Shown: positions 6,358 through 46,421 of the stretch, in pieces
How the letters are laid out: every line of letters begins with the position of its first letter
Position numbering within the stretch: the stretch's first letter is position 1
NCBI GenBank assembly: GCA_900169235.1
Contig: FWCC01000408.1
Location: 1-46,753, forward strand
Direction: 5' to 3'
Source of the DNA: Zarea fungicola
Taxonomy: Eukaryota; Ascomycota; Sordariomycetes; Hypocreales; Cordycipitaceae
Length of the DNA: 46,753 bases
Translations under genes and position numbers: made by a program
Notes under the pieces: model-generated
The model's database searches: none
What the model was told of the DNA's origin: nothing
The model's input: only the letters and a program-made list of their open reading frames with translations

Positions 6358-6676
6358 AGTGAGTGACAGGTCAGCGTTGCTTTTTGCAAATGTGTTTTTT
6401 GGGGGGCGCATATGAATTTTATGCATGTTTGGGACTAGCCACAGTGTTTCGGATACCTATACGAAGGCGGCCTGGTCCGTCGCCATGTACGCGCCGTGTG
6501 TCTCCGGAACGCAATGTCGCACCCATGTCTTGAACAGTGTACAGCGCACTTATGTCGCACCCTACCCCCGTAGTTCTGGGCCCAGCCGTGTCTCTTCCTT
6601 CCGTTGCCAGTATATTACGGATGAGCTCTCGCTGGTCACTTTGCATACACACACTGGAACTGGCCATCTCCCGACA
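6358..6676. promoter_or_regulatory. shared divergent promoter of HsbA-like and reductase genes
   Basis: The 319-bp spacer between two divergent starts must hold both promoters. An open frame runs through it in phase with the reductase from 6425, but its translation has no resemblance to the family, so I treat it as non-coding. No regulator site is recognised. Confidence 0.5.
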
Positions 6677-7900: not shown

Positions 7901-8092
7901 AAAATAAGGTAAATATGGTTGAGCGCTAGACTCACTCAGGCTGGATAATACATTCTATTCCGGTTTCAATTTTGGCGGCGAGATTTACACTTTAGAACGA
8001 GTAGATTACTGCGTCGACCACAACAGTAGGGGGTAGTTACACCGCATCCATCTCACCACTTTGAGACAAGTTGTCGTATTCATAAGACATAC

Positions 8093-14000: not shown

Positions 14001-15703
14001 CCGGCAAACTACTACATGCCTCGTGGCAGTGTGTTGCCAGCTTCGGAAAGATGCTCGAACTGGGTAAGATTGATTTTTCGACGAATGCAACACTTGGCAT
14101 GAGCCCCTTTGCAAAGAATAGGGCATTTATCGGAATCGACCTACTTCAACTGGCAAGTGAACGGCCAGAGATCCTATCGAGGTGAGTTTACTGCAGAGAA
14201 CTTGCAAAGTCAAAATCAGTTCGACAAATTATTTACTAACTCCCTCTTTTTCTATGGTATAGTCTTGTACACAGTGTGTGCGGTCACTTAGAGGCCGGTC
14301 AGTTGTCTCCTCTACCGATACAAGAGATTCATGACGCTTCAAACACGGCGGAGGCGTTGCGACACATGCAGGCAGGTCAGCACATAGGCAGATTTGGACT
14401 GAGGATGCCGGGCAGTACAGAAGACCTACCGATGCCATTGGACTCGCCAGATGCTGTCCATTTTAAAGCCGACGCATCATATCTCCTGGTTGGCGGCACC
14501 GGTGGCCTCGGACGGGCCATCTCCAACTGGATGGCAGAGCGCGGCGCTAGGCACCTCGTCTACCTGTCGCGAACAGCACCACCCGAAGATGGCAGCGACT
14601 TTGTACGCGAACTTGCCGTCCAGGGTTGTCAGGTGGAGTTTGTGACTGGAAGCGTGACGAGCCTGGAAGATGTGCAGCGCGCGATTACTACCTGCTGCGG
14701 AGAGGAGCGGCCGCTAAAGGGTGTCCTGCAGCTGTCCGCAATGCTTTGTGATCGTACATTTTCCAACATGACACACAAGGAGTGGGATGATTGCCTCGGC
14801 CCAAAGGTTACCGGCACGTGGAATCTGCACGAGGTGCTCCGCCATGCCCAGGACAAGGTGTCGCTTGACTTTTTTGTCCTCTTCGGCTCTCTGGCCGGCG
14901 TGTATGGAAACGGCGGACAGGCAAACTATGCAGCTGCCAACACGTACCTTGAGAGCTTCGTGCACTACCGCCGGCGGCTCGGGCTGCCGTGCTCGCTACT
15001 GAATCTCGGACCAGTTGGCGACGTGGGTATGCTGAGCCGGGATGACAGACTGCTGCGGACTCTGCGGGAGACAAAGTCCGTGCAGCTTCTGCGTGAAGCA
15101 GATGTGTGCCGAGGTCTGGGCATTGCCATCGCCCAATCCCCAGTGACGGCCATAATGCGTACCGCGAGCTCTGGCGAGACAGGAGCGCTGGATCTGAATC
15201 CCCGAGCTTTGTCCTCCTCGGCCATTGTAAATATAGGCATGAACACGGCAGAAGGATGGCTCGCCTCCCACTCGTCGGCATCGCGGGCGGCGTCGTGGAT
15301 CGACGATGCTCGCTTCGCGCTATACGCGAATTTAGATTGCAACCGGACCAGCAAGGCAAGCATCGTAGACAATCGCTTCTACGCGTTCATGGCGCAGATT
15401 GAGGAGAACCCGGCGATCCTCAACCAGCCAGAAACAGAGCTCGTCATCTGCCGGGAGATTGCGCGCCTGATGACGGGTTATCTGGGCGGCGGTGGCAGTG
15501 GCGCTGGTGAGAAGATTAGCGATGAGGACATTGGTAATATTGCGATTGATTCGCTCATGGCGATTGAGATCAAAGATTGGGTCCGGGGCAACATGAATCT
15601 TGATGTGAGCATGGACCAGACGTCGAGATCGCGGACGTCGGGTGAGCTTGCGAGCCATACTGTGGAGCGACTCAAGGTCAAATATGGCCTGATTGAGAGT
15701 TAG
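8093..15703 (+). CDS. highly reducing iterative type I PKS (KS-AT-DH-psiMT-ER-KR-ACP)
   Basis: Five exons: 8093..10547, 10605..13360, 13415..13696, 13766..14181 and 14263..15703, giving 2449 residues. KS: active-site C261 in TACSSS, H397 in HGTGT and H438 in NVGH. AT: S713 in GHSSGE. DH: H1029 in HxxxGxxxxP and D1203 in HPTVID. A methyltransferase-like block (about 1300-1500) has lost the glycine-rich SAM motif (reads IGVDAPD). ER: NFRDIL at about 1735 and HSACGGVG at about 1836-1843. KR: GGTGGLG 2047-2053, S2179 and Y2192. ACP: S2400 in IDSLMAIE. All reductive centres look intact, so a largely saturated chain is expected. No thioesterase, reductase or acyltransferase follows the ACP. The start is uncertain: ATGs at 8093 and 8255 both precede KS in frame. 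It follows the stand-alone reductase. Confidence 0.93.
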
Positions 15704-17522: not shown

Positions 17523-17933
17523 GTATTTCTCCATCATTTTGATATCTTAGCGGAACGATGAGTCGATGTTGGATGCTTTGGTAAATTCAGTGTCCTTTAA
17601 AGCGACGATATATTAATTTCACCGCTATTCTGCGGCTTACGTGGGGGCGCCACCATCGTCCATCAGGCTTTCTGCGAACTCAGCCCCCGACACTGGTCAC
17701 GCGAGTAACCAATCAAAGGTTTGAAAAGGGTACAATCATTCAACTATAGTCGACTAGTCAAAAATAATTCCCTCATTAGTCCACGTGCCATGTATTTGCC
17801 CCTCCTTTTAAGCACTGCCAAGACACTACAGAGACACTATCGACATCCTTCCGCTGCCAAGAGATATTGATCCGCGTTTTCCAAGATAGAGTTTCTACTG
17901 GTGAAAATATACAAAAATATCTTACGACGAGAT

Positions 17934-20900
17934 ATGGATGATGAACGAGCTTCCAAGGGTGAGCAAGCCGGGGCTAGCGACAGCGGTGGAGTAAACACGG
18001 AGGCGCCGCCGCAACAGCAGCCTGCCCGGGCTGGCGAGCCCAGAATTCAATTCAGCGCAGGCGTCAAGCCGAAATCGAAGGAACCCGTCAACACCAATAC
18101 CCTTTCTTTTGGGGTGCCCATTACAAAAAGGTCACACAGTATTGTCTCGATCCCGCAAGTGGTCTCTCCAGAGGAGAAGAATATCCGCCAGCGCGAAAAG
18201 GAACACGCCAAGCGCAGTGTGGCCATTGACGAGCATCTTGTTCCTCACATGGAGGTCGCCGCCAGATATCAAACCAAAATCGACCTTGCGGAACCTGGAA
18301 AGTCATTTGGGTTGACCAGTGAGCAAGCGAGTGAGCTGCTCCGCCATCATGGCGCCAATATCCTGACGCCGCCCCCAAAAAGACATCCAATTCTCAAATA
18401 CATTGACTGCCTCACTAGTCTTTTCAACTTACTCTTGGTCGTGGCAGGTGTGCTAGAGTATATTTTACTTGGAATCAATTACAAGGCAAACTTCCAAAAC
18501 GTAAGTTCTTGGCGCTATTGGGTGGAAACGAGATGAGTAACCCGCATTTTAGACATACCTCGGAGCAATACTTATTGCGGTTGCATTTATCAATGCCTTC
18601 ATCGAGTTTTACCAGCAGCAAAAGTCCCAGGCCCTGCTGGAGTCGTTCTTGGCCATGATTCCGGCAAAGTGCGTGTGCTTTCGCGACGGGAAACTAAACC
18701 AGCTGGAAGCATCTGCCCTGGTGCCTGGAGATGTGGTGCACGTTCGCATGGGCGACAAAAATCCGGCTGACCTCTTGATTTTTGCGGCCTCGGATTGTCA
18801 GGTGGACAATTCGTCCCTCACTGGTGAATCCGAGCCCCAGGAGCGCCACAAGGATAACGATTTAGAGAACCCCCTGGAGGCGACAAACATCATGTTCAAC
18901 AGCAGCTTAGTGGTCTCTGGAGAAGCGTACGGGGTCGTTATTCGCACTGGCGACGGCACGATGCTCGGTCAAATCGCGAATCTCACTGCCAGCGAGGACA
19001 AGACAAGCTCCCCCCTTGCCCACGAGATTGACAATTTTGTGAAACTGATTGCAACCATTGCTATTGTCACGGCAATCATTTTCTTTGGCATTGCATTTCC
19101 CGTCAATAATAATAACGCGTCACTGGCCATCAACTTTGCCATCGGTATATTCGTAGCATGGGTGCCAGAGGGTCTACCAGCCACAGTCACCATGCTCCTG
19201 ACTATTGCGGCGAAGAGAATGGCCAGCCAAAACGTTCTCGTAAAGGACCTGCAAGGTGTGGAAACCTTGGGAGCCATCACCTTGCTCGCCACAGACAAAA
19301 CTGGTACCTTGACACGGAACCAGATGACGGTTGCGAATCTGTGGACATGTGGTACACTGTATTCGGCGTCTGAAAGCGTCGACAACGAGCTAAAGGTTGC
19401 CAGCCTGGAAACGCCGGGCATCAGTGATCTTCTGCACACTTTTGCTCTCTGCTCTCGTGCAAAGTTCAATCAGACGGATACCCCAATCAGAAACCGAGAG
19501 GTAATGGGTGACGCCACAGAATCTGGCCTGTTCCGCTATTCTGCAGACAAACTCAGGGACTTTGATAGCCTTGCAACGCGATACCCAAAGGTCTTTGAGC
19601 TACCATTCAACTCGGACACAAAGTGGCACATGACAATTCTCAAGAAGCAACATGAAAACGGAGCCCTGACTCTCTACATCAAGGGCGCCCCAGAGAGGGT
19701 GTGGCACCTTTGCAGCCATTTTCTCACTGCCGAAGGCGAGTGTGCGCAGCTGACCGAAGAACACACAGCCGCATACAACGATACCTACAAGCGCATGGCC
19801 AGCCTCGGTCATCGTGTCCTAGGGTTTGCCAAGCTTTTACTCCCCGGCGACGAATACCCCGAAGACTTTCGGTTTGATAAGAAGGCTAGCAACTATCCGC
19901 TCGGGGGTTTCATTTTTACCGGACTGGCCTCTCTCCAAGATCCACCAAAACATGGCGTCCGTGAAGCCATTGGACGCTGTCGCGAAGCCGGCATCAAGGT
20001 CATCATGGTCACTGGTGATCATCCGCTGACTGCGGAGGCCATTGGTCGAAAGATCAACCTCGTCATTGGCGAGACAAGGGAGATGGTTGCATTGCGCAAG
20101 CAAAAGCCGATTGAACAAGTCACCGAGCACGAATACAAGGCCGTCGTGATCCATGGCGAGACCATAGACAGCCTCACGGATGCGGAATGGGACAACATTT
20201 TCTGGAAAGACGAAATCATCTTTGCTCGCACCTCCCCAAAGCACAAGCTTGAAATTGTGCGCCGGGCCCAGAGCATGGGCCATATTGTTGGCGTCACCGG
20301 CGACGGCGTCAACGACTCTCCCGCCTTGAAAAAGGCAAACCTGGGCATTGCGATGAACATGTCCGGCTCCGACGTCTCCAAGGAGGCGGCGTCCATGATT
20401 CTGCTCGACGACAACTTTGCAAGCATCGTCCGTGGAATAGAGGAGGGCCGACTCATCTTTATCAATCTGAAAAAGTCTATCCAGTACACCATTACCCACT
20501 CCACCCCCGAGGTCATTCCCAACCTGCTCTACATCATTGTGCCTATCCCGCTACCGCTTTCCGCCATTCTCATCTTGGTGATCGATCTCGGCTTCGAGCT
20601 CATTGCCGCCCTCTCCTTTGCGTGGGATCCGCCAGAGACGGCAGATGGCCTGATGAAGCTGGCCCCGCGCAAACCCGTCACGCAGCAAACCAGCAACATC
20701 TTCCGTCGACGCGCCCTGCGCCGGACCCAGTCCCGCTTCGACGAGGAGTCCGGTGAAGTTATTTCTCCGGAGCACCAAAGCCGCTGGCAGAGGTGGGCAG
20801 GCAAGGCGCACCAGATGGTGACGCGGGAGTACTGGGCGGACAAGCTTGAGGACACAGGCGCCGCGGTGTTGGTGGACAAGTACCTCCTGTCGTGGGCGTA

Positions 20901-21474
20901 CATTGAAATGGGCCTCATCGAGGCCGTGGGCGCCCTGACGTCCTTTTTCGTCGTCTTGCACCGGCGCGGCATCTCCCCGTACGACGCGCATGTCATGCAA
21001 AAGGGCGCAGGACAGCCCACACACTACTTTACAAAGGATGCCGAGCCGTACAAGGGCATCGACGGACCGACACAGGTGGACATTCTGGCGGAGGCGCAAT
21101 CCATGTATTACTGGGCCATCATGACGATGCAAATGTTCAACCTGTTTGCGTGCAAGACGCGCCTCACGCTTCCGTTTGGGAGGTACATGTTTGCGAACAA
21201 GGCCACGTTTTACAGCATCTTTGCAGGCGCGTCGCTGGCGGCGTTTGTCATTTACACCCCGGGCGTGGAGACGGTGTTTAAGACTACGCGCAGCCTCAGC
21301 CCGCTGTACTGGCTCGTGCCGATGGCTTTTGGGTGCGTCCTGATAGGGTACGCGATGGCGCGCATGGTAGTCGGGCGCAGGACAAGGCCTATCACTTGGA
21401 ACCCGGAGATTCAGGGTCTGCAGATGTATCCTACCATCCGCACGGTTAGAAGTGTGTCTGCCAGAAGTGTCTAG
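17934..21474 (+). CDS. P-type ATPase, Na,K-ATPase-like (subfamily IIC)
   Basis: Two exons, 17934..18500 and 18553..21474, encode 1162 residues. This is a plasma-membrane-type cation pump. A basic, polar N-terminus precedes the cation-ATPase N-domain (QASELLRHHGANIL). TGES (about 279-282) is the actuator motif, and the M4 signature is VAWVPEGLPATVT. The phosphorylated aspartate is D437 in DKTGTLT, KGAPERV marks the nucleotide-binding domain, and GDGVNDSPALKKAN (from about 772) the hinge. The C-terminal transmembrane segments follow. The wording around M4 and after DKTGT (RMASQNVLVKDLQGVETLG) is closer to animal Na,K/H,K pumps than to fungal PMA1 or ENA pumps. The ATG at 17934 was preferred; the 11 codons upstream begin with GTG. 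The 5' intron is 52 nt with GTAAGT and TTTTAG. Ion specificity cannot be read from the sequence. Confidence 0.9.
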
Positions 21475-23889: not shown

Positions 23890-24820
23890 ATGAACAACAC
23901 ACGACTAGATCCGGGCCTGTCCGCCATGCTGGATGCCTCCAACTTCCCCATTGATCCAGGCGCCCTCGTTCACCAACAGGCCCTTTCTGAAACGGGCAAT
24001 TTGCCATCTCGCACAACATCAACCTCGTCCGCCCGACGATGATCTACATCAGACACGGAGTTTGACCACAACGGCGAAGAAGAAGTAGAAGACTGCTTTA
24101 CATTAAAGAAGCCCAACACCAGATCCAGAAAAGCCAGCGGTAAATTACACGCATCAAAATCTAAAACCAAAACCACAACAACAACCAAATCCAAATGGGT
24201 TGCCGGTGGAGGCAGCACCAGTGGTGGCACTACCACAAGCACTACGACAAAGAGTGGTGGCGGCACTAAGAAGCTTCGCAAGCGAAACCTCGAGCGCAAC
24301 CGCACCGCGGCTTCCAAGTGCCGCCAGCGCAAGAAGCTGTGGCAGGACGGGCTGGAGCGTCGTAAGATGGAACTTGAGAGCCGCCACAAGGCGCTGCACC
24401 TTGAGACCGTGGAACTCGTGGAGGAAGTCGCCCTGCTTAAGAATTTCGTTATGGCGCATGCTACCTGTAATAATGCCAATATTGATAATTGGATCTGTAA
24501 CAAGGCGGATAATTTTGTACGACGCATGAGCACGGCCGGTTTACATGGGCAGCCACAACCTGGTGCTGGCAATGCGGAGTCCCATTCGCAGAATATACGT
24601 ACAGGAAGCCTCCTGTCGAATGGTACGTTTCTATACACATCCTTGATAAAGTACAACTGTAAGAATATTAATTTGCTAATGTTTCGTATTTTCAATAGAT
24701 GTCATGTCACACATGTCTTCCCCACCCGGACAAAAAGCTCTGTTTGATCTATGCGTTCGAGCTGGCGTCGCAATCAACGATGACAGTATTTTCACACAAG
24801 ACACTCTCGTGGTCTCATAA
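23890..24820 (+). pseudogene. bZIP transcription factor (ATF/CREB-like), in-frame TGA at codon 51
   Basis: Exons 23890..24622 and 24699..24820 (intron GTACGT...AATAG) encode a bZIP protein. The basic region NLERNRTAASKCRQRKKLW has the consensus N-x-x-A-A-x-K-C-R and leads into a zipper with Leu/Met heptads (RKMELESRHKALHLETVELV), then LKNFVMAH and a short tail (INDDSIFTQDTLVVS) across the intron. The N-terminus MNNTRLDPGLS aligns with MNMTRLTPDLS of the bZIP at 32203, so the start is well supported. Codon 51 is TGA (24040..24042), directly after two CGA codons, while the frame stays open for 194 further codons to the donor. The next in-frame ATG (24367) lies inside the zipper, so no DNA-binding product can be made by re-initiation. 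A CGA-to-TGA transition is the simplest origin; a base error is the alternative. Confidence 0.75.
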
Positions 24821-29298: not shown

Positions 29299-30360
29299 CT
29301 ACATTGCGCCTGAAGCTCTCCAAGAATCCAAAGCATCTTTACCCAATTTGTCCTTGATGAACTTCTCGCTGAGCTCCCACAACTCTGTCCCCAGCTTACC
29401 ATCGGACGCCAAAGAGCTCTCGCTGCCTAAAGTTTCAGGATCGGAGAAGTATGCGCCGTTTTGATCCCGCTGTTCCACTTCTGGTGCGGTGAGTGCCCAG
29501 AGAGTGCTATAGGAGCCCTGTTCCGGGTCACGGCCAATGGTCTTCATGGCTGCAGCAATAAGCTGTCCCGTAATCCCAGGATACGCATCCTTCCATTGAT
29601 CTTGCATAGCCGTATTTACCTACACATTCAATGCGTTAGTAATAAATAGTGTAATCACTTTCTGTGGTACACATACAGCGCCTGGGTGAACTGCAAGAGC
29701 GTAGATGGAGTCGCTGGTGGGTTTAATCACCCGCTCCAGCAACCCGAATCGGACAAGAAGGATGAGGGCCAACTTGCTTCTAGCATAGAGTTCCACCGGG
29801 CTCAGGTTTGGGTTATTAATGTCATCGAGAGAGGAGAACTTGACATTAGACGGTGCCTGTAGGTGCATGCTGCTGGAAACAGCAACCACACGAGGACCGG
29901 TCACGCCTGGCATCAAGCTCGTTCTGCGAAGTGTCGCCCACAACTGGTTGACGACGTAGTATTGCCCGAGATAGTTTACTCCAAAAATCTTTTCAATTCC
30001 ATCCTGGTCGAGATCGTACCGGTTTGCATTGATACCTGCAGAGAGAACGAGGTAGTCGAGCCGATCAAGTGAATCGCGCAAGTCTCCAAAGACCGATCGG
30101 ACTTCGGCAAGATTGCCAAGATCACAATGTTTCCAGGAAATTTCAGCATTTTCGTTTCTCTTTTTAATTTCTTTAATAGCGCTGTTTCCCTCGTCTTGCT
30201 TGCGATTCACCATGATGACCTTGCAGCCGGCCTGGGCGAGCGCGGCGCTGACCTCGTAGCCAATACCGAGAGCGCCTCCTGTCACAACGGCCACACGGCC
30301 AGTGAGATTTTGAGGATGCACTTCCATCGGTCCAACAACCTTGTGAAGAGTCGACTGCAT
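29299..30360 (-). CDS. short-chain dehydrogenase/reductase (retinol-dehydrogenase-like)
   Basis: Exons 29677..30360 and 29299..29619 (57-nt intron, GTATGT...TGTAG) encode 334 residues. Rossmann motif TGGALGIG is at 27-34, followed by a CDLGN acidic turn (about 79-83). The usual NAG reads LSAGI, the catalytic Ser lies in VSSSM (162-164), and Y192-x3-K196 is in YARSK. The downstream HPGAV motif is split by the intron, as the first Val codon of exon 2 completes it. The C-terminal part (GRDPEQGSYSTLWALTAPEV) is typical of the WWOX/retinol-dehydrogenase-like classical SDRs in fungi, which often tailor secondary metabolites or reduce lipids. The start at 30360 was chosen over an upstream TTG-led extension. 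Substrate unknown. It stands alone, with over 1 kb of empty sequence on each side. Confidence 0.88.
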
Positions 30361-32202
30361 GATTAATAGAGAGATTAAATAGAAAACTTTTCTAAAAGAA
30401 AGTACAACGACGAATGTAAAATGATTATGCAAGAGTAAAACTGGCCCAGTAACAAGAGATTGGCGGCACGAGTACAGTAGCCAGAGGCATCAAATGTTCA
30501 AATAAGCCCAAATATCTCGATTTCGTCATTTTTACACGAATATTAAATGAATTGTAATTACTCCAGTTGCATCAGCTATCAGGTTTCATAAATGCCATGT
30601 GGTGATGTCATATATCTCGTCACTCTGATCGGTAAAAGGTGTTCAAGCGACTCTGAGCAGAATTTTGCAAAAATTAGGTTGGATTTAGAATTGGAGTTAC
30701 TATTCTCCCTTTTCCTGGGGCTGGACTATCAAGTGATACCAGAGCTTCACCATTTCCGCATCTCGTACCACGGAGCAGGGCTTACAGATTTGCAGTGATA
30801 GCTAGTTTGTTATTGAACGAGATTAAACACCTACAGTTGCTTAAATTAGTTAGGAAGTACTGTCGTTCCATCACCACTTTCCTTGGCGTTATAAACCAGT
30901 TTAATGTAGTAAATACTTATTAGAGAGTTAGTTTTTATAGAAGTCAGAATTTTGTGCGTACGCTACCATCAATGAAAGTTGATTTGTTGGCACTAGCTTA
31001 GTTGTACACCATCTGTCTGCTCAGTTCTGCCCTCAACTCGACAATCAAACCCGAGTCTTTATTTGTTTGAAGGACTCGCAGCAATAATTCATTGCCTGGT
31101 ATATTTGATCAAATATTTTAAATACACTTTCAGCCTCCTATTCCATCAATACCGCCGTCCGTGAAGTTTGGAACGACGGCTTGGAGTCCGGGGCGCGGCC
31201 CTGTTGTCTCAATGCAGATCTGCCGTCCGCGAGAGATCTACTCAGGCTCAGTGCAACGGCGATGCAGTTATTACTAAAGCAAAGTAAGGCTGTCATAATA
31301 ATATCAATGTACCAAACGTATATCAACTCGTGCGCTGTTAATTTATTGGTTTGACAATGTTTTCGAGCTCATCTGTTTGCTTTGTTTGGCATTTTGTTTG
31401 ACTGAGGGCCAGTGCATAACTAAAAACATGGCTCGGCGCGGGTGGCAATCAATTAAGGTGCTGGGCAGTACGGTGCATCTGATCCGTGTAATGTCGATTT
31501 CTCACCTTTGATGCAAAATCGCAGGTTAATTGGCGGAGCAAAATTCCCGCTGTGACAATGGGCTGTTCCCTAAATGCCAGTCGTTCACCAATGGGCACTG
31601 CAAAACAATTAAAGGCAGGCTGCTCCACCGCAGCCACTAAATCGCTAGCTTTTAACCAGCTAGTTTGGCCCAACTCTATTGATCATGATTGTCTGGAATC
31701 TTGGAGTATGAACTATTGTGTTCCCCTTTCAAGCGGCAGCAATGACGTCAGTGCTCGCTCTGGCATACGGAAAAATGTTTAGCTGTCTTTGTTGCTTTGA
31801 TTGGGTTTTTTGTGCGGGGGGGTTGCGTTGCTTAGCTTGCCTTTTTATTTTGGTTGCAGTCCGTCAGAATTCCACATGTATTAATTAATCATGCTTAGGA
31901 TATGGCTGGGTGACTGTCACCACCACCAGTGCCATTCACCTATGCCACCTTTACTAGTTACCTTCACTCAGTCTTTGCTGCTAAATGCTATCAGGCAGGC
32001 ATTTATGATAATCAATGCAACAGTTTGAACAGAGAACTTTACCTCAGTAGGAAAATCTCCAGGGTTGCGAGAGGAGTCCTAATTCATCATCTACCTGGAA
32101 TATAGCTGTTGATGGTCATACTGACCCTACAGGTATTCTATCTGGCGACACAGCCATACAAGCCTCCCAAGCAGACAAACACATACGCTCCCTCCCAAGG
32201 TG
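30361..32202. other. intergenic, no gene seen
   Basis: About 1.8 kb between the divergently transcribed SDR and the second bZIP gene. Only short frames on both strands, none with a recognisable domain or signal peptide. A perfect CRE is at 31743..31750. Confidence 0.55.
31743..31750. promoter_or_regulatory. perfect CRE palindrome TGACGTCA upstream of the bZIP gene
   Basis: Exact ATF/CREB site about 450 bp upstream of the ATG of the intact bZIP gene, whose basic region belongs to the type that binds this palindrome. Autoregulation is an inference. Confidence 0.4.
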
Positions 32203-33082
32203 ATGAATATGACACGGTTAACTCCCGACTTATCCGACATACTCCAGGAAACCAACAAATCCATCGCCCTCCTTAAACCAGACACTGATTCCTCCTTCCA
32301 CATATCATCAACAGTATCAGTAGGGCTCTCATGCACACCCAACACGGACAACAATGTCGACGGCGATTACAATGAAGAAGGCGAGATAGCACATAAATAC
32401 AATACGAGGAGCAGAAAGAAAGTGTCCACTGCGTCACTCAAGTTGAAAATAACGCCGGCGAAGCCGATTGCGGGGAGCGCTGCCCGCGACACCGCAGTCA
32501 AGAGGCGCAACCGCAACCGCATCGCCGCCGCCAAATGCCGCTACCGCAAGAAGCAGTGGCAGGATGGCCTCGAGCGCAAGAGGATAGATCTTGAAAGGCA
32601 GTCCATGGCCCTGCACAGCGAGTCCGAGGAGCTTCTGGAGGAGGTGGCGCAGCTCAAGAACTTTCTCATGGCCCACGGTGCCTGCGGCGATACCAAAATT
32701 AACGACTGGATCTGCAACCAGGTGGATATGTTTGTGAGGCGGGTGAGTACAGCGCAGGCACTGATGCATCCTGCATCAGCACTGCCCGTCTCGGCGGCTG
32801 CGCTCAATGAACCAGACGAAGCCTCCTTCCCTGGGGTACACTAACAGTGAACTCCTTAATGAATGGCAATAACAAAACAATATAAACAGTATTGAAAATA
32901 ATGCTTGTTTATAAATCACAGAGACGCCGAACAACATGGCTGCCACCTCTGGCTCTAAGGCGTCGGTTGATATTATCTCAAACAAGTATGAGAGCTTGCG
33001 ACCCGGCGACCCAGACAGCACCTCGCAAAACAACAATATTTCCCACCATGAGTTTCTCATGCTGGATTGGATTCAGACATGA
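32203..33082 (+). CDS. bZIP transcription factor (ATF/CREB-like), intact paralogue
   Basis: Exons 32203..32835 and 32924..33082 encode 263 residues. The basic region KRRNRNRIAAAKCRYRKK (about 100-117) has the N-x-x-A-A-x-K-C-R core of ATF/CREB-type bZIPs and runs into the zipper (RIDLERQSMALHSESEELLE), then LKNFLMAHGACGD and INDWICNQVDMFVRR. The acceptor of the 88-nt intron was placed at CACAGAG, two bases after an alternative AG, because only this keeps exon 2 (NNMAATSGSKASVDIISNKY) in phase. The start is supported by alignment with the N-terminus of the broken paralogue at 23890. The shared block from basic region to FVRR, similar intron position and 8-kb distance indicate a local duplication. 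Predicted nuclear homodimer; target genes unknown. Confidence 0.87.
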
Positions 33083-34544
33083 TATAATTCTGTCACCTTT
33101 TTCTCACATCGAGATGTCTGCATCAACATACTGTCGAGTTTCTGCGCTTTCCTGGCATTGTTTTCTCCTCCAGCCGCGCTTTCTCCCTCTTGTTTTTGTT
33201 GTTTTCTATTTGTTTACTTGTCGATATCATCATTCCATGAACCAAGTCAAAACATGCAAATCGGAAGTACTGGTAATGAGCAACCGACATAGGATATAGT
33301 GGGCTGGGCTCAAAATTGCTTTCGTCATCAGTTGGAAATTGTAGTATTCTTCAGGGAAACTGAAAGACTCTGACCCACCATGTATCCTGGACACACCACT
33401 GAAGGGGGGATATCCGAGTATAGATGCCCACCATGGCAGCGCAATCCCAAGGCTCCAGTGTAAGATAGTGGCATAAAACTTTCTCTCCTTCTCTTGTTCT
33501 GTGTTTGCACAAACCTCAATCTGACACAATCATGACCCAGCGTTTTGGGCAGCAGGTTTGGTTCAGTCATTAGCAAGTTGCAATCGCTGCTTCTGCTCTC
33601 TGCAACGCCCCAGGCCAGGTCCTGGCGCAAGGAGCAGGAAGCAGCGGAAGATACCACTATGGTGGAAAGCGATTACGTATAGAAAAAAACATAAATAAGT
33701 TATATGTATGAAGTTATGTCATTATAATGTGGTGTATTTTATGCTCTCTTTTGATATACCAAGGTGCAGCTCATTACTAGATTCCGTTACTTCCCTGGCT
33801 TAGTCTGGCCCGGTCCAGTCTGCCATATCTTGAATCAGACTGTCCCAAAATGTAACGACCCCGTCCACCTTGCACATGGCGGATTTAATAGTGTTGGAGA
33901 GTTCCAAGAGACGAAGGAATCACATTCTGCTGGGACAAGCCAGGAAGCATAGGCACTTTTCCAACTTTTTTCTTCTTTGACCATTTCCCTATTTCACTAA
34001 GCTGTAGACTGTGAGAACAGAAAAAAGCCCTTGGACAGTATAAAAAGCCTATTTTTCACTGTCTATTACTTGATTTCTAGAATTAAGAGCGCCTCTCCGA
34101 TGCAAGCTACTTCTGACAACGGTCAGAGCTTTGCCCACCCAAGTAAGTGCCAACACTAGCTAGCCCCCGAACGCTACCAGGGTGAGAAGCTCACCAACGG
34201 AGAGCCGCAACCACCTAACTTGGTATCACCAAGGTCAGCAACTATACTCATGCCCAGGCGAATTTGTAGTTGTCTATCTGCGCTCGATCGACATAACTTT
34301 ACTGAACCTCCTCCTGTAGTTGGGATCTCAGTACTTGGCATTTTTACTGCCCTGTATCAAGTTTGGAGTATGAGAAATGCAGCGACTGTAGACTAGAGAC
34401 AAATATCGGAAAGATAATTTGAACCTGTGTATGCTATTACTACTTCTAAATGTTCTACATAATGCTATCTGCGGCCAGTACCTTTGTCTTTACTGCCGCC
34501 AGGAAAGCATTGCAATATTAGGCAGCTGAAGATGTCGCACTCTA
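33083..34544. other. intergenic, AT-rich, no gene seen
   Basis: About 1.5 kb downstream of both the bZIP gene and the UstYa-like gene, which converge here. Several 60-110 codon frames exist on both strands, but none has a domain, a signal peptide or coding-like composition. Confidence 0.55.
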
Positions 34545-34845
34545 TTAGTCCATTAGATTTTCTGTTAGATCCAAATGCATGTTAGTGGACATAATAGCAT
34601 GAGACTTAGCCCAGTCTCGAATTTTGTTGAAATTTCGGCAGCTGTGCGCAACATCCCCGTGGAATTGCATTCTCTGCCTTTCTTTGTTCCACTGATAAAC
34701 AAGTGTGCTAACATCAGCATGACACATAAGAGACTGCCGTATAGAATCGACACAATGCTCGATATGCTCCAACTTCAAGTATTTTAGCACTTCTTCGCTT
34801 TCTGACATATTAAGGCTACGGTAGTAATCGACGTAGAAAGACCGT

Positions 34846-35032
34846 TGTCACGACTCATATCGTGTCACGTGCTAGAAAGCGGCGGATAAAAGGCGAGATA
34901 GCGGCGTAGTACGCACTGGAGAGGACCTCTTCCTCTCCAGTGATCAATAGAGTCATATTACAACTATATTACAGCTATCTTCTTGCTATCTCTCCCATCA
35001 CCTTCTTCGTGCTAGCCACAACGTTCCTGACA
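34846..35032 (+). mobile_element. solo LTR (187 bp) with 5-bp target-site duplication
   Basis: It begins TGTCA and ends TGACA, the inverted TG...CA termini of retroviral-type LTRs. It is flanked by identical ACCGT at 34841..34845 and 35033..35037. Inside are a TATA-like GATAAAAG (34885..34892, plus strand) and a perfect 12-bp hairpin (34914..34942, loop CCTCT). No internal retrotransposon sequence remains, so it is the product of LTR-LTR recombination. It lies within the last coding exon of the UstYa-like gene. Perfect duplications suggest a fairly recent insertion. Confidence 0.9.
34914..34942. repeat. 12-bp stem hairpin inside the LTR
   Basis: CACTGGAGAGGA and its exact reverse complement flank a 5-nt loop, just downstream of the TATA-like box. 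A likely transcript-level hairpin at the R region of the element. Confidence 0.7.
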
Positions 35033-35673
35033 ACCGTCTTATAATGTTCTATTGATGGAATTGTCAGCTCCAAAGTCACTTGTTGTTTCCTGCGTCACTT
35101 ACAAGGCAGTGAAGCTGATGGAACACATCCAATTCGACGAAGTATTTATCAGTTGTACCACTTATCCTTCCAGTCCTATTTGTCAGCAATGCGGCATCTG
35201 CTTTGGAAATGGCTAATTGGCCAACTGCATGCGTCGGTTAGTGTTGTTCTACCGTTTTTTTTTTCGTAAGGGTTAGGAATTTGATTGCCTACATTCGTAT
35301 AAATCCTTCCATGCACGATTTCTTTCTTCATTAGGAAGCCCTTGAAATGCGGAAATATTATCGTCAAATCCCTGTGTGAATGTCTGTATCTTGTATTCGA
35401 TTTGCTCTTGTGCTGGAGCTAAGTACTGTTAGCATGTATTAGTCTATTTCATGACAAACTTACAGTACATTATCTGTGCACATATCTGCTAAACAGAAAC
35501 GGTCGTAATAGTCCGAAAGTGACGAAAAGAAGGCAAAGGATGCAAACTGTAAGCCCGAAAACAATTCTCTCCTTCCTCTGCAGCTGTCTCAGAGAAGCTA
35601 TATCGTGAGATTTTACTGCCGCATCGCAGCAATTGTGCTGTGTAAGAGGATAATAGGTTGTCTTTGGTAGCAT

Positions 35674-36131
35674 AGTATCCGTCAACTAGAACCTTATCCT
35701 TCCCGTCGATGAAGAAAAAGCAGTACCTGGAACTCCTTTTTCATGTCTGTGAAACAGGTTTATGGAAATGATCTTCAATACTGTTAACTAAGTTATCATT
35801 TATATCTTTTTCTCGGGGGAAACATGTCCTAACGCTATATGATAAGCAGTGCCACAATATCGGCGACAACGGCCGTTGACATCGGACTTATTAGTAAGTG
35901 CTGACATCAGAAAATAGCGCTGATAGTATTGCAACATACAGATATTTATAATACGACACATATATTTGTAATTACTGCCTTTATTTGTCTGATGCTCAAA
36001 TGATTCAGATGACTTTGTTTCTATAAAGGATTATATTCTCCTCCTCGTATTCTCCTACTCATTGGCAAATCCAGGTGCTAGCTTACCTATTTCCTTATTA
36101 TACTTTCTATCATATCCAGATTTCTTTCATC
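35674..36131. promoter_or_regulatory. shared divergent promoter of UstYa-like and precursor-peptide genes
   Basis: A 458-bp AT-rich spacer between two divergent starts, with no ORF of its own. Head-to-head placement of precursor and oxidase is a usual way of keeping a RiPP pair co-expressed. No specific operator is recognised. Confidence 0.5.
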
Positions 36132-36323
36132 ATGAAGTATATGACTATTATATCTCTCATAGTCGCCCTCATAGAGGCAGCTTCTATTCAACTTCTCGAT
36201 AGCCCTTCACCTGCTGGACATAGTTCTATCAACAACCAACCGTACGCAGAAGACGCAGAGGGTTGGGTTGGCAAGCGTGGGGAAACACCTTACGCAGAAG
36301 ATGCAGATGGTTGGGTTGGCTAA
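36132..36323 (+). CDS. secreted Kex2-processed repeat peptide, putative dikaritin-type RiPP precursor
   Basis: Predicted 63-residue precursor. Residues 1-17 form a signal peptide (MKYMTIISLIVALIEAA); this, not the upstream in-frame ATG at 36075, is taken as the start because it opens directly on the signal. A leader of about 19 residues follows, then PYAEDAEGWVG (37-47), a Kex2 site KR (48-49), GET, and PYAEDADGWVG (53-63) ending at the stop. The two copies differ at one residue (E/D). Short Tyr-containing repeats separated by Lys-Arg are the hallmark of UstA/PhomA-like precursors; the divergent UstYa-type gene supports this. Two copies is few for the class. After the second repeat the bases AAGCGT recur one nucleotide out of phase, so a further KR may have been lost. 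An alpha-type mating pheromone is the alternative, but the Trp/Cys pattern usual there is absent. Confidence 0.75.
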   Translation: MKYMTIISLIVALIEAASIQLLDSPSPAGHSSINNQPYAEDAEGWVGKRGETPYAEDADGWVG

Positions 36324-39501: not shown

Positions 39502-41943
39502 TCATTCAGGAGCTAGATTCGGTTCCGTGCTCTGTAATTTTTGCAGCAGATTGTTGAGCCTCTGCTCTTCAACATCGCCGCCCAAGTTTACCAGATTTAC
39601 TGGGTAGGATGCACGAACATAGCTGGACGTGAGTGAGGTGGGAGTTTCTGGTGACGAAAGACCTAATGCCGAGTTCGCGAGATCAGCCATTTCGATCGGT
39701 AATTTATCGTACATGAGACGGAACACTGTGTTAGATAGATGTGCGCAGCTACCCTGTGCAGAAAGACCCTGCAGAGCAAGCAAAAGACTGGATGCTACGT
39801 CCACTTTTCTTGTTGGCGGCATCTCGGACCCGCGACAGTCTGCAACATATCTGAACCCAAGAGCAGAGAGAAATTGCAGCATGACTGGTGCGTATGTTGT
39901 GAAGCCATGCCTCAGGTAATACAATCGAGCAATAGTCTCAAGGCTGGCTCTCGCCGTTTGCATAAGAGTCGCGACTGTCTGAGTCACCTCTGGATGCGTA
40001 GCTATCAATGTGTTGCTCAAATCTGAACTTGCAAATGGTTCAAGTAAGTGCATCATGACATATTGGAAGTGCAAGCTAGTTAAAATTAGACTCCAACTTG
40101 TGAGGACATTGAAGAAATTACGAGACGTAAATGCTCGGCGAAAACTCACTGTAGTTGTAAGTGCGAAGGTAAAACAATATTCGACGGATTAAGCGCTGCC
40201 GGCAGTGTTCGAAACCATGTCATAAAATGGCCATAGTACTCGGTGGCTTCTTTCAGGGAAAGCGTCTTCCTTTTGGCGCCGCCAAACAAATCATTGGCAA
40301 GGTCATTTAGAATGATATGAAATTTTGCCGTGTGAAAGAAAAGTGATGGGAAATGATACTGCTGGACATCAGCAGTCAGAGGATAGGAAATGTGCACCTC
40401 TCCATAAAAGTGGCAGTCTTTGAGCGGGTCTGGCAGTGGTGTCTCGGGGGGACGCTTGAACAAAGTAGGTCTGTAATAATGGCAGCAAACCATCCTTGAC
40501 AAGAGGCCGGTAGAGTTAGCATGGACACACCAAGTCATTTCCAGTTTGAGATGATTGTACATACGCCTGCCAAGAGAATAGCCCCCAGGCGGTGAATTGA
40601 CGCGCGGTAAACATATCTGTGCGCGCGTAGCTCTCTTGGGGTCCAAAAAGATTTAGACTGTGCGCGATTTTCGCAGCTTCAACCATGTAAATGTTGCCGA
40701 TTTGGTCCAGTCCATCCATGTTGTAAACAGTGTTCATCACAAGCGCCGCCTGCAAAGTAGTAAGCTTGCTTTGGCCTATTTCTAGCTCCCACAGCCTCTT
40801 GGCCTCGGCAAAGAAGCGGTAGCAAAGGCTTTGTGCATCCCAAGGCTCATTACGTCCTTTAAGTTGCGGATGATAGTGCGACGCAGCCGCAAGGACTGCG
40901 TTGACGAGGAGACTGGAGCAAAAACGAGTTTGGCCTGCTTTGAGATCCTCTAGAAAAAGGTCTTTTTGAAAGATGTGGAAGAAAGGGTAGGCATGGAGAA
41001 TGTAGAGCTCCATCAGTCGATGAAGGAGAGTTTCGTCTAAAATGACAACCGTCCATTTGGAAATCTTGGTGCCGCTCAGACGAGGTTCGACGAGAGTGGC
41101 TCCGTGGTAAGGCATCTCAAAGACTGAATCTGAATCGGCATCTGGCACCGGGTCTGTGTTCAATTGTTCATGTCGCTCATAAATTCGAACCTTGAGATAT
41201 GGGTTGTCATTCTTCAATAAAAAGTCTGGCCATTTATTGCTAAATGGAAACTCGTATCTAGTCCGGCATTCGGGCCTTAAAGAAAGTTGCAACAACAAAT
41301 CAGCGTCCTGGACATATCGAAGCATGGTTGCTACGTCATGTCCGGACCTCATCAATTGCAATATATGGTAGGCATCCCTCTCGGGAAGCGCTTGCACCAC
41401 GTGGTAGAATTCCTCAAAGAGATTTCCAGTGTTCGGCCTTTGATCTGGAGGGGCAGTTCCCTGCTGCTTCTGAGATAGGAGGGTTCCGACAGTAGTTCCG
41501 GCTCGAATCCTTTCCAATATTTCGATTCCCTCTTCTGGAGTACCTGTTTTTATGAGATCAAATAGCTCACGATAAGCAGATCTTTCAACTCCTTCAGCAA
41601 GAAGCTCGTCATACATCCGTTTCAAAGTCTGTCCCCGCGTTTCTGCGGAGCCGGCCCTATAATGGCATTCGACCGATCGCCGGATACAGCTCCTGCATCT
41701 TGGCCTCACACCGGAGCACTGCAAGTAGTTAGGCACACGGTGAGTTTTAGAATCCAGATTCTTTTCACTTGGTACCTTAATTTTGCTTTTGCGACAAGCA
41801 TCACAAGCAGTGGCTACACTGACCCTCTTTGGCACTGCCCGCTGCATAGTGGCTGCCCCTTCGTTTGACCTGGTAGCGTTACCGATGCTACCAGCGGGGA
41901 GAAGCGGTCGCAAAGGATGGTTGCTTCCATTTGAAGGGGACAT
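39502..41943 (-). CDS. Zn2Cys6 fungal transcription factor (746 aa)
   Basis: Exons 41776..41943, 40565..41718, 40150..40494 and 39502..40075; introns of 57, 70 and 74 nt with GTACCA, GTATGT and GTGAGT donors. The binuclear zinc cluster is complete: C47-x2-C50-x6-C57-x6-C64-x2-C67-x6-C74, with the first intron falling just before C57. A linker and a helical ILERIRAGTTVGTLL block follow, a feature of many Pezizomycotina regulators. The middle-homology region starts near EMPYHGATLVEP and includes LMELYILHAYPFFHIFQKDL. The N-terminal 40 residues are low-complexity. It is divergent to a paralogous regulator at 44002 with the same first-intron position. Probably a nuclear activator or repressor of nearby genes; the target is unknown. 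Confidence 0.92.
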
Positions 41944-44001
41944 TATGTCAAGTAGAACCGGATTTCGCCAATTCAGAGGTTATCTGGCATGTTTTGCAGG
42001 GCAGCTGCACACGACGAAGACGGTTAAGGGGCGGGCATCAACTGGGCCACGGTGCGGCGGGCATGGCTGGAATACCTGCTGAAAGCCAGAATCCTTTGGA
42101 GTGCGTAAAGGACAAGTCACAGCAAGGTTGGCTAGTATAAAATTGGCGTCAACTCTTACTATTGACGGCTGAGGCTTCACTAACTGCTCTCCACATTACC
42201 AAGCTGTTTTAGGCGCAACCCCGCACTTCCGCACCAAGTGATTATGTACCTTTGCCAGACATGCTAACCTGCTTTATGAACGGTGGTCGGAACTCTTGGG
42301 TGCTTCCTCGCAGTGGAATTCTGCTACCGACACAGGAAACACTCCCTTGGGTGGAATTAAAGAATCTCGACTCCATAGAACGCTCCTTAGTACTGTTGGC
42401 CAAGGATCGCTAGACTGAGGAAGAATTGGGAATTATTTGTTTACTCGTTTTGCGTCTTTTCTGTATCTTTTTTCTTGTCTTCTTGCTTTCTTGGTGTTGC
42501 TTGTTTTGGTACGGAGGTCGCTTTCAAAAGTCATGTCCTACGCTAACTTCACGCAACCCTATTGACAAGGATTAAACAGGGCTGAATACCTAGGGGTACA
42601 ATAATCACTATAATCATGCCCTAGCAAAACAAGATTAGAGTGTCATTGTCCAGACAATAGGGAAAGTGCGTAGTGGCTTGACCCCTAAAGGTTCCCTGTA
42701 TATTTGGCACCTGTCCCTGGAAGCAGATGTATAGTAATGTCACGGCTCGAATATCCTTTTCAGGGTTAGAAAGTGGCGTAAGACACGACTTTTGAAAGCG
42801 ACCTCCGTACGTGGTGGGATTGAAAGGCTGCAAAGCTCGGAGCATAGGCACGATATAGGACCAGGTCTAAATTAGGGAAAGGGTTGGTGTTCTAAGGGGG
42901 TCTTTCTTCACACACACACGCACAAGCAAGTCATGTGTCTGACATTTTTGTGTTTTTTCTTCTAAACTTGCTTGATGACAAGGTGGAAAAGGGTTGAGAC
43001 TAGCTCGGAGAGGATTCTTAACGATTGCATTGACGGCCACCACTCATCTACACAGGAGTTTCTGAGTTGAATAATCAACACAGTAGCGTAATTGAATCTA
43101 AAAACAGGCCCAGTCCAGTTTTTGGTACATCCTTGCTGTCACCTAACTACTTGAAGTTTATCCAAAATTTTGACAAAGCCGGCCTGATTGGATGTGAATA
43201 TATCTATGCCATCTCTTTCAGAATTTCAAAGCTACGCAAATACTGAATCTTCCCCCATCAAAAAAATCTCAATAAATTATTTCCTAGTTTATATTGATAT
43301 AATGGCTATTTCCTCATGTTATTGTCGGTAATCAGTCGGCTAGAATGTAACTTGGATAAGAGGGTATTGTCGCTTCTAGCACCTCCCCTCCTCACTGAGC
43401 AGGCGAATGCCGGCCTCTGATTGGCTGATTCCTCCTTCATGTACGCGTTATGTGCGAGTATAAGATGTAGTACACGCGTATTATCGCACCGCCCGATGAA
43501 ACCCTCCATTCGTTAACTGTCAACTGATAACCACTTGTGATAGTGGCTTGCTCCAAACTACGGGTGATCACCTATAAGAGGTGCTAAATGCTACGAATAT
43601 GCAGCACCCACTCATCCCGTGAAGAGTCATTTGCCAGCCTAGTAACCAGCGTACATGACTCCTCTTGGTTTCCCACATCTCTTGGTGCCGGCAATGCTAG
43701 CTTCAAGAAAAAGCAATGCCGGCCAAGGTTTGCCGCAGGGTTAGGGTTAAATTGGGCCTGGTTGGCTGGAGCTGTATCACCGCCCATCTACGCTGCCTGA
43801 TTGGTCACTATTCCGCTGTCACTTTAGAGTGTGATGGTGCGGGGTATCGCCCCAGTCCAACCTGCCGTTCTGGCAAGACAGACGTTTGTTAAGATGTCTC
43901 GTACAGTAGTCGCTTCTCGGTACAACCTGTCCATTCTACCTAGTACGAATTAGGAGCAGACAGACTCCCAGATTCTGCGCTCAACTGCACTTTGAATCAG
44001 C
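41944..44001. other. 2-kb divergent spacer between the two regulators
   Basis: It contains both promoters and a 296-bp MITE (42512..42807). The remainder has only short frames with no domain. An AGGGTTAGGGTTA stretch near 43737 is too short to be called a telomeric tract. Confidence 0.55.
42512..42807. mobile_element. mariner-type MITE, 296 bp, TIRs and TA duplications
   Basis: The left end begins CGGAGGTCGCTTTCAAAAG and the right end is its inverted copy; 21 bp match perfectly and the similarity continues to about 34 bp with three mismatches. TA dinucleotides flank both ends (42510..42511 and 42808..42809), as with Tc1/mariner transposition. The interior has no transposase ORF, so it is non-autonomous and would need a full-length relative elsewhere in the genome. 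It lies between the two Zn2Cys6 genes, about 570 bp upstream of the left one. Confidence 0.85.
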
Positions 44002-46421
44002 ATGTCAACGAGACGTTCGGACACTGGTTCACGACCGTTACGCCGACTTGCACCTTTCATTCCTCGCTCCACTTCGCTACCACGAACGTCGGGATCTCAT
44101 GCTCAGCAATCGACGTCTTCGGTCCCCAAACGCCGTACTGTCGTTACTGCAGCTTGTCAACTCTGCAGAAAACACAAAACAAAGGTTTGTCTCGGCTCTG
44201 TCGAGATTATAAGTAGAAGGCTGACTCGTTCATGTCGACTCAGTGCGATGCTGGTAGTCCCTGCGCGGCATGCAAACGTCGCAACGCTGAATGTCTTTAC
44301 GAGACGGAACCGAGCGAAACACGACAGCAGGCATTAAAGCGGAAAGTCGCAGAGCTACAGAACCATTCCTCGAGCTACAGAGTAATCTACAATCTACTCC
44401 GCGACCAGCCAAAAAATAATGCCGACAGGATTCTCGAACGTATTCGAAGCAGATCTGACGTCGAGAGCATCTTGGAAGATCCCACGTTACTTCGTCAGTC
44501 TATTAGAAGCGAAGCTGGACTGCCGATGGATAACATTTCCGAGCAAAAAACGGCGCTGGCAGCCCTACCCCCCATCTATTCGGAGCGAGAGTTTGAGCTG
44601 TTGGTTCGACATCCAAACGCCTATCCGACGCTTAATCCCTTGGATGATATTGCATTATCAAAGGGTTCACGGTTTCGGCCAGTCAAGATTTCCCAGCCGA
44701 ATAGAGATAACCCTCGTCTAAACCCGTCCCAGACCTTACGATCCATTGTCGCCGCGCCTAGCCTGCCCCAAGAAAGTGACCTGGGCAGCGCTGATGCCGC
44801 CTCCTTGCGATCTAGTCCAAACTCAAGCTATTTTGACAAACGCTTGGAGCGATTGAACATTGCTTTCTGGACAGCTGTTCCCATAACGAATCAGTACGCT
44901 GCACGTGCGATCTCCTTGTACCTCGAGACGGACCATCCATTTTTAGGGCTTTTCGATGCCGACCTCTTCCTCGAGGACTTGGTGGACTGTCAACTCAATC
45001 ATTGCTCCGCGTTTCTCGTAAGCTCATTGCTCGCATTTGCATCTGTAAATGGCCCTTGTTCATCTTCGAGAGAGAAAATACACTGAAAAAGCTTTAGCAA
45101 GCGTATACACTGAGAGAGCCAGTGGCTTTAAGCAAGAGCTACGAATTTGAAAGCGAAGCCAAGAGGCTAGCGGAGGTCGAACTTCACTCTGACAGCCTCA
45201 CCACAGTTGCTGGCCTACTTCTTCTCTATGAATCCATTGGCACTCACGGCAAGATGGCTTTGAGCTACATTAACCACATGTTTGACATGGCAGCTAGAAT
45301 GAGGCTGTTTGGCGTTGAAGAGAGACTGAACACTAGTGAATTCGCCACCCTTTCTTCAACAGAGCAACGCTCAACAGCATCTGTAGCATGGGGAGCTTTC
45401 AACTTTTTCTCGTGAGCACTAGCAATAACGGGGCTTGAACATTATGCTAATGTATCCAGCATGGTTTCACTATTTGATGTTGTTGTTGCTAGTCCTTACC
45501 CGCCATCTATACCTAAACCTGGAAGCCGTGGCAATCGAAATAATCGAGAGAATATGGCCGATACCTCCGCCTCTACCCCAGATTCAAAGGTTCAAGTCTT
45601 CCCTTCCCTCTGCTCTTTGTGGACCGTTGCTTCCGAGGTTGTGTTCTTTTACCGCACTTCAACGGGACAGAACCAAGTGCCTCTTGCATTTGCGCTCTCG
45701 AAATACTACAAACTGCTATGCTTAGCAGACAATCTGACTGATTCAATGGTCCGCAGGCAAAATAGTACTGCCCAAACGCTTGTCTTTCAGTAAGGGTCTC
45801 TTTCTGCTCTTTCGGTCCATATAGTTTGTTCAGATGCTGACTAAATAAAAAAGTATCTGGTATCACGCCGTTGTCCTCTACATCTTTCGCCCATTCATCG
45901 TGAATGAGAGTCATCACGACATCGGCAAGTGGACCTCTCCTTTGCCGTCACCAGAGGCTATATTTGCTGCATCTGTCAAACAAATGAAGCGTCTGATCCT
46001 TATATACGGAGCTGAACATCCTTGCGCGGCTTATTCTGTCTTTTGGCACGCGGGATTGATGTATGTCGCCAACGCGGCTCTCAAGAGCCCGAGCGATGAC
46101 AACTGGAAATCATACTTCGTGCTCTGTATCCGTGGCTACTCCAAATTAGCTGCCTCGTTTCGGTTCGCTAGCGGCCTTGCGCAGGGCTTACTTGGAATGG
46201 CGCTAGATGTTGGTGCGATAAGTCATGATGAGGCGCTCATTCTGAACTGTGAACTACGCTATGAAGCAACTCGCTATGGATATTTCAAAGACACTGTGCA
46301 GGGATTCACATTGGATCTCAATCTAGCTCAGTCAAATCAAAAGGCAGCGCGCGTTGAAGAGCTGATTGACAAGTTTGAGGAGATAACTCTCTTTAACGAG
46401 CTTACGACGGGGATTTACTAA
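44002..46421 (+). CDS. Zn2Cys6 fungal transcription factor (731 aa)
   Basis: Exons 44002..44184, 44244..45044, 45098..45411, 45460..45789 and 45854..46421; four introns of 48-64 nt, all GT-AG and in phase. The zinc cluster is C52-x2-C55-x6-C62-x5-C68-x2-C71-x6-C78, interrupted by intron 1 just before C62 as in the divergent paralogue. Shared landmarks with that protein include the ILERIR helix, a DHPFLGLFDADLFLEDL block (YPFFHIFQKDLFLEDL in the other), the AKRL/E-L segment and the C-terminal region after IWYHAVVLYIFRPF. The last exon (KQMKRLILIYGAEHPCAAYS, then ALKSPSDDNWK) is typical of the fungal-specific regulatory domain. No lesion is seen. It may control the RiPP pair or another local gene; position alone suggests this. 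Confidence 0.92.

What the first reader, a model, noticed from the sequence alone, without database searches (positions are those of the whole stretch)
34545..36323. Divergent precursor-peptide / UstYa pair: a minimal dikaritin-type RiPP locus with a core not known to me
A 63-residue secreted precursor has two copies of an 11-residue block (PYAEDAxGWVG) around a Kex2 KR site. It sits head to head with a gene carrying the UstYa/DUF3328 hallmarks: one N-terminal TM helix, an IEY block and two HxxHC motifs. Ustiloxin, phomopsin and asperipin pathways use exactly such pairs. The acidic, Trp-ending core is unlike the core motifs I know (YAIG, YVIPID, FYYTGY). Neither reading frame is conspicuous: the precursor is tiny, and the oxidase is split over four exons and an insertion.
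Basis: partly seen in the sequence, partly recalled or inferred. Interest (0 to 1): 0.9.

Follow-up and report, generated by a model that had tools for sequence, protein, structure and literature searches.

The report
Fungal peptide gene beside broken oxidase
A mould probably related to insect-pathogenic fungi carries a tiny gene for a repeated secreted peptide next to a gene of the kind that turns such peptides into cyclic natural products, but a piece of mobile DNA has split that second gene, so this looks like a new, disabled member of a known family of pathways.

Summary
ORF 36132-36323 (+) encodes 63 residues: a hydrophobic N-terminus and two PYAEDA[E/D]GWVG blocks around one KR. Another, unnamed contig encodes a 79-residue, 78% identical homologue with three blocks, so the gene is real. 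The divergent neighbour is UstYa/DUF3328: its last-exon piece scores 74.3 bits to PF11807 (cut-off 25), and both HxxHC motifs are present. The 'insertion' is a 187-bp solo LTR (34846-35032; TG...CA ends, ACCGT duplication; 26 further matches in the genome). It lies between the two HxxHC motifs, so the oxidase is very probably dead here while the precursor stays open. A flanking bZIP gene points to a Hypocrealean fungus. Of 20 other UstYa regions fetched from the same genome, 5 hold secreted Kex2-type repeat ORFs, each with a divergent UstYa within 2.6 kb; two have cores ending GWG-KR, reminiscent of GWVG-KR here. Such adjacency is well documented (PMC7329392), so this is a new member of a known kind with a core not found in the texts searched. 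Cyclisation, the residues joined and activity are untested, and linkage of the pair outside this genome could not be checked.

The parts
36132..36323 (+). Repeat precursor gene, 63 aa: hydrophobic N-terminus, two PYAEDA[E/D]GWVG blocks, one KR
   Evidence: only match in the genome; homologue P0001, 78% identity, three blocks; 1 of 209 ORFs
35485..35673 (-). UstYa N-terminal piece with one hydrophobic helix; presumed ATG at 35673, 458 bp from the precursor ATG; 3' limit of this exon not settled
   Evidence: read directly; no Pfam match for 35530-35673 alone
35291..35419 (-). UstYa piece with the IEY block (approximate exon 2)
   Evidence: within PF11807 match 35243-35521, 30.7 bits
35103..35210 (-). 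UstYa piece with the first HxxHC motif, HQLHC (approximate exon 3), followed by a gtaagt donor-like site
34846..35032 (.). Solo LTR, 187 bp, TG...CA ends, 5-bp target duplication ACCGT, inside the last predicted exon
   Evidence: (26 other matches at 72-98% identity, some partial, one of only 29 bp)
34545..34845 (-). Rest of the UstYa last exon with the second HxxHC motif, HIEHC
   Evidence: ORF 34545-34847: PF11807 74.3 bits, E 1.7e-20

Best explanation
A dikaritin-type precursor/oxidase pair of a Hypocrealean fungus, disabled in this genome. Shown by sequence: a Kex2-type repeat protein gene, a divergent UstYa gene about 0.46 kb away, and a solo LTR splitting the latter. Inferred: in a lineage without the insertion the precursor enters the secretory pathway, Kex2 cuts after KR to free G-x-x-PYAEDA[E/D]GW[V/I]G peptides, and the membrane-anchored UstYa oxidase cross-links a side chain (Tyr is the residue used in the known cases; the Trp is a candidate partner) to give a cyclic peptide. 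In this genome the peptide would leave unmodified or be handled by another UstYa.
For: PF11807 matches; repeat ORF unique in the window and conserved with a different repeat number on another contig; LTR ends, target duplication, other copies with their own duplications; five further secreted repeat ORFs near UstYa genes among 20 fetched regions, each with a divergent UstYa; UstYa genes peak at the gene next to such repeat genes in a survey of 1461 fungal strains (PMC7329392, section 7 read).
Against: No expression or product data. No tyrosinase match on this contig; no methyltransferase, peptidase or peptide transporter among the 30 of 94 window ORFs of 100 aa or more that were scanned, though asperipin-2a is made from four genes without tyrosinase (passages). 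Only two repeats and one KR. Exon 1/2 junction of the oxidase not settled. Pairing outside this genome unproven. Shorter exons were not scanned systematically.
Confidence: 0.76

Rival explanations
1. The repeat gene makes a linear secreted peptide (signal or pheromone-like), and the UstYa gene beside it never acted on it.
For: 6120 of 7878 catalogued repeat proteins have no DUF3328 gene within 15 genes; linear peptides of this class are found in mushrooms (passages of PMC9769878); the precursor stays open although the oxidase is split.
Against: UstYa is the immediate divergent neighbour and a divergent UstYa recurs at five other repeat-gene loci; catalogued pheromones almost never have DUF3328 neighbours (passages of PMC7329392); the block contains Tyr, as do 65.6% of DUF3328-linked repeats against 38.2% of others.
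Confidence: 0.14
2. The pathway still works here: another UstYa acts in trans, or the LTR is removed by splicing.
For: 55 UstYa pieces, 40 merged loci, in the genome (lower bounds); the nearest own-genome piece among those fetched is the one at C230 beside a GWG-KR precursor, 55% over 53 aa, and both fall in one supported set of 11 tree rows.
Against: The LTR has 3 to 6 stops in every frame on the gene's strand and splits an exon between the two HxxHC motifs; within the set of 11 the tree does not resolve the window piece's nearest kin.
Confidence: 0.08
3. The repeat ORF is a chance reading frame.
For: It is tiny and matches no Pfam family.
Against: 78% identical homologue with an extra block; 1 of 209 ORFs passes the repeat criteria.
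Confidence: 0.02

Closest known systems
Asperipin-2a locus (aprA/aprY)
   Same: One repeat precursor with one DUF3328 oxidase and no tyrosinase; four genes in all (passages of PMC6514808)
   Different: Core FYYTGY; has a transporter and a reductase gene; oxidase works
Ustiloxin and phomopsin loci
   Same: Signal peptide, Kex2-separated Tyr-containing repeats, UstYa-family oxidases
Kex2-processed repeat proteins with DUF3328 neighbours (PMC7329392)
   Same: Architecture and adjacency: 1758 of 7878 catalogued
   Different: Strings of this core are absent from that paper's main text and from the full texts of the held library (four strings); its supplementary tables could not be read, so it may be listed there

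Membership tests
UstYa / DUF3328 (PF11807) | Profile match above curated cut-off | tested here: met
   74.3 bits against 25 for the last-exon piece
UstYa / DUF3328 (PF11807) | Two HxxHC motifs | tested here: met
   HQLHC and HIEHC, on either side of the LTR
UstYa / DUF3328 (PF11807) | Intact gene (needed for a working member, not for homology) | tested here: not met
   Solo LTR with stops in all frames
Kex2-processed repeat protein | Signal peptide | tested here: inconclusive
   Nine-residue hydropathy up to 3.42 near the N-terminus; no signal-peptide predictor on hand
Kex2-processed repeat protein | Internal repeats with a dibasic site between | tested here: met
   Two blocks around KR; three around two KR in P0001. 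One survey asks for three repeats (passage of PMC6339444), which this copy lacks
Dikaritin RiPP | Precursor gene beside a DUF3328 gene (class-defining enzyme in the newer definition quoted in PMC12048977 section 23) | tested here: met
Dikaritin RiPP | Tyrosinase, methyltransferase, several DUF3328 genes, transporter or peptidase in the cluster (older definition, same section) | tested here: not met
   No tyrosinase match on C186 and one UstYa gene only; the others not seen among 30 of 94 ORFs scanned
Dikaritin RiPP | Cyclic product with a side-chain cross-link | not testable with these tools
   needs mass spectrometry

The most novel reading that the evidence does not exclude
This fungal lineage runs a set of divergent precursor/UstYa pairs whose cores carry a Tyr and a Gly-Trp(-x)-Gly just before the Kex2 site (window, C230, C439), and the oxidases join Tyr to Trp. 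Tyr-Trp bonds are known in RiPPs in general (abstract of PMC13250620, listing), but the UstYa passages I saw describe other bonds. Single pairs are switched off by LTR insertion while the precursor persists.
Probability: 0.1. Interest if true: 0.7.

Novelty: new member of a known kind. Interest (0 to 1): 0.38.

Why it matters
It adds an acidic, Trp-containing core to the catalogue of fungal repeat precursors, and shows one genome with at least six precursor/UstYa pairs, one of them apparently caught in decay. Two-repeat precursors like this one would be missed by a survey asking for three repeats.

Tried and rejected
Linkage in the second sequence: the UstYa last-exon search (8 hits) and the bZIP search (18 hits) list no contig of 8311 bp, the length that carries P0001; uninformative rather than negative, since exons may not have been predicted there. 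Tree of UstYa pieces (30 rows, 82 columns, one short row dropped): the window piece is in a supported set of 11 (96/94) that also holds the C230/C439 oxidases of the GWG-KR loci, but its nearest kin are unresolved, so a sister relation is not supported. Lichen origin was considered after a paper listing and dropped on the bZIP relatives. Pfam gave nothing for the precursor and PHROGs only a match at E 0.6. One search failed on a wrong coordinate and was repeated correctly. Literature: seven searches; only looked for the core itself (0 papers), and searches gave nothing I could use on gene orientation or on insertions in such genes. Supplementary files could not be read.

Full report
What is there. 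The window is contig C186 of a 43.1-Mb draft genome. On the + strand, 36132-36323 encodes MKYMTIISLIVALIEAASIQLLDSPSPAGHSSINNQPYAEDAEGWVGKRGETPYAEDADGWVG. It is the only match in its genome. In a collection of 5.8 billion proteins the search returned two proteins: the window's own and P0001, 79 aa, 78% identical over the whole query, with three blocks, on one unnamed contig of 8311 bp. Over the leader (residues 1-36) 27 of 36 residues agree; over the two aligned blocks 19 of 22 agree (counted by eye). Under fixed criteria (a 9-mer pair with 7 or more matches plus a dibasic site) it is 1 of 209 window ORFs.

The neighbour. On the - strand the PF11807 profile matches at 34599-35159 and 35243-35521, and the ORF 34545-34847 taken alone scores 74.3 bits. 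The pieces read in order: a hydrophobic helix (35485-35673), an IEY block (35291-35419), HQLHC (35103-35210), then the last exon with HIEHC. These limits mark the peptides I located, not a gene prediction. Donor- and acceptor-like sites are plain for the second and third introns; for the first, a stop in the helix frame precedes the best donor-like site, so that junction is not settled.

The insertion. 34846-35032 is 187 bp, begins TGTCAC, ends CTGACA, and has ACCGT on both sides. One search returned 27 matches in the genome including itself; the best other copy is 98% identical and several are partial. Of four other copies aligned end to end, three (L010, L011, L012) also have 5-bp duplications, and the more diverged fourth (in L031, 76%) shows none. 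Nothing but the 187 bp lies between the duplications, hence a solo LTR. It falls inside the last predicted exon, between the two HxxHC motifs, and carries 4, 3 and 6 stops in the three frames on the gene's strand. Loss of function is therefore inferred with good confidence. The close match of another copy fits a recent insertion, but no date was computed.

The genome. A bZIP gene at 32125-32844 has 18 hits, one the window's own; the 10 that carry an organism name are Aphanocladium, Cordyceps or Beauveria. Aphanocladium is Hypocreales; that the other two are is recalled. This is one gene's evidence. UstYa pieces number 55 (a lower bound), 40 loci after merging within 1 kb. Of 34 regions wanted, 20 were obtained. 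A scan of 1,319 ORFs over the 34 records held, overlapping loci counted more than once, gave 37 with a repeat. By hand I kept those with a signal-like start and dibasic-separated repeats: the window and five regions (L015, L016, L017, L021, L024). Dropped were other-frame readings of the same repeats, low-complexity and ankyrin ORFs, and one partly masked locus. In all six a UstYa match lies divergent at 0.6 to 2.6 kb. It is the nearest UstYa in five of six; at L015 a same-strand one is nearer (0.85 kb), and at L017 a convergent one is about as near (960 against 957 bp). Distances are between profile matches and ORFs, not between start codons. L015 and L016 cores end NNPAGWG-KR and FMPVGWG-KR. 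Repeats of the window, L015, L016, L017 and L021 contain Trp; those of the window, L015, L016 and L024 contain Tyr. The sample is small, and in a large survey Trp is not enriched in DUF3328-linked repeats (20.5% against 24.5%).

How it would work, and status. By analogy with ustiloxin and asperipin (passages) the precursor would be cut by Kex2 and cyclised by UstYa. Here one cut would release GETPYAEDADGWVG; the first block stays on the propeptide unless another protease acts. All of this is inference. In this genome the dedicated oxidase is split, so the simplest reading is a decaying pathway with a precursor not yet lost.

Known or new. The arrangement is that of Kex2-processed repeat proteins with DUF3328 neighbours: 1,758 of 7,878 in one survey, the count peaking at the next gene (PMC7329392, section 7 read). 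Strings of the core were not found in that paper's main text or in the held library; the survey's 2,560 stand-alone proteins (abstract) sit in tables I could not read. Verdict: a new member of a known kind, broken here.

Noticed in passing
L015, L016, L017, L021, L024 (own genome): Five further secreted repeat ORFs near UstYa genes, with cores such as QNGDILYNNPAGWG, NGNPDILYFMPVGWG, VDPHKVDPHNRFW and HKYSVSAKEADA; a short tyrosinase match (34.5 bits) lies just past the L024 pair.
   Followed up: partly
own genome: 3 of 27 matches of this LTR family lie within 3 kb of one of 40 UstYa loci (0.16 expected); four distances were tried, and one of the three is the window's own, found because it sits in a UstYa gene. 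May only reflect shared repeat-rich regions.
   Followed up: partly
94-3016 (-): NPHP3_N/NACHT-type piece, winged-helix piece below cut-off and ankyrin repeats: an NLR-like gene, with a 93-bp tandem repeat at 340-600.
   Followed up: no
6416-15703 (+): Polyketide synthase pieces (KS, AT, DH, ER-like, KR), probably highly reducing, preceded by a NAD_binding_4 ORF.
   Followed up: no
17871-21474 (+): P-type cation ATPase pieces.
   Followed up: no
29620-30489 (-): Short-chain dehydrogenase ORF about 4 kb from the oxidase; could be a tailoring gene, but nothing ties it to the pair.
   Followed up: no
24043-24747 (+), 32125-32844 (+), 40516-41979 (-), 44217-45086 (+): Two bZIP and two Zn2Cys6 transcription factor ORFs (the last only 21.1 bits against a cut-off of 21): the pair lies among regulators.
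   Followed up: partly
32125-36323: The window's bZIP and UstYa last-exon proteins are listed on a contig of 6540 bp and its precursor on one of 11736 bp, so another assembly of this stretch seems broken between them; cause unknown, perhaps the LTR repeat.
   Followed up: no
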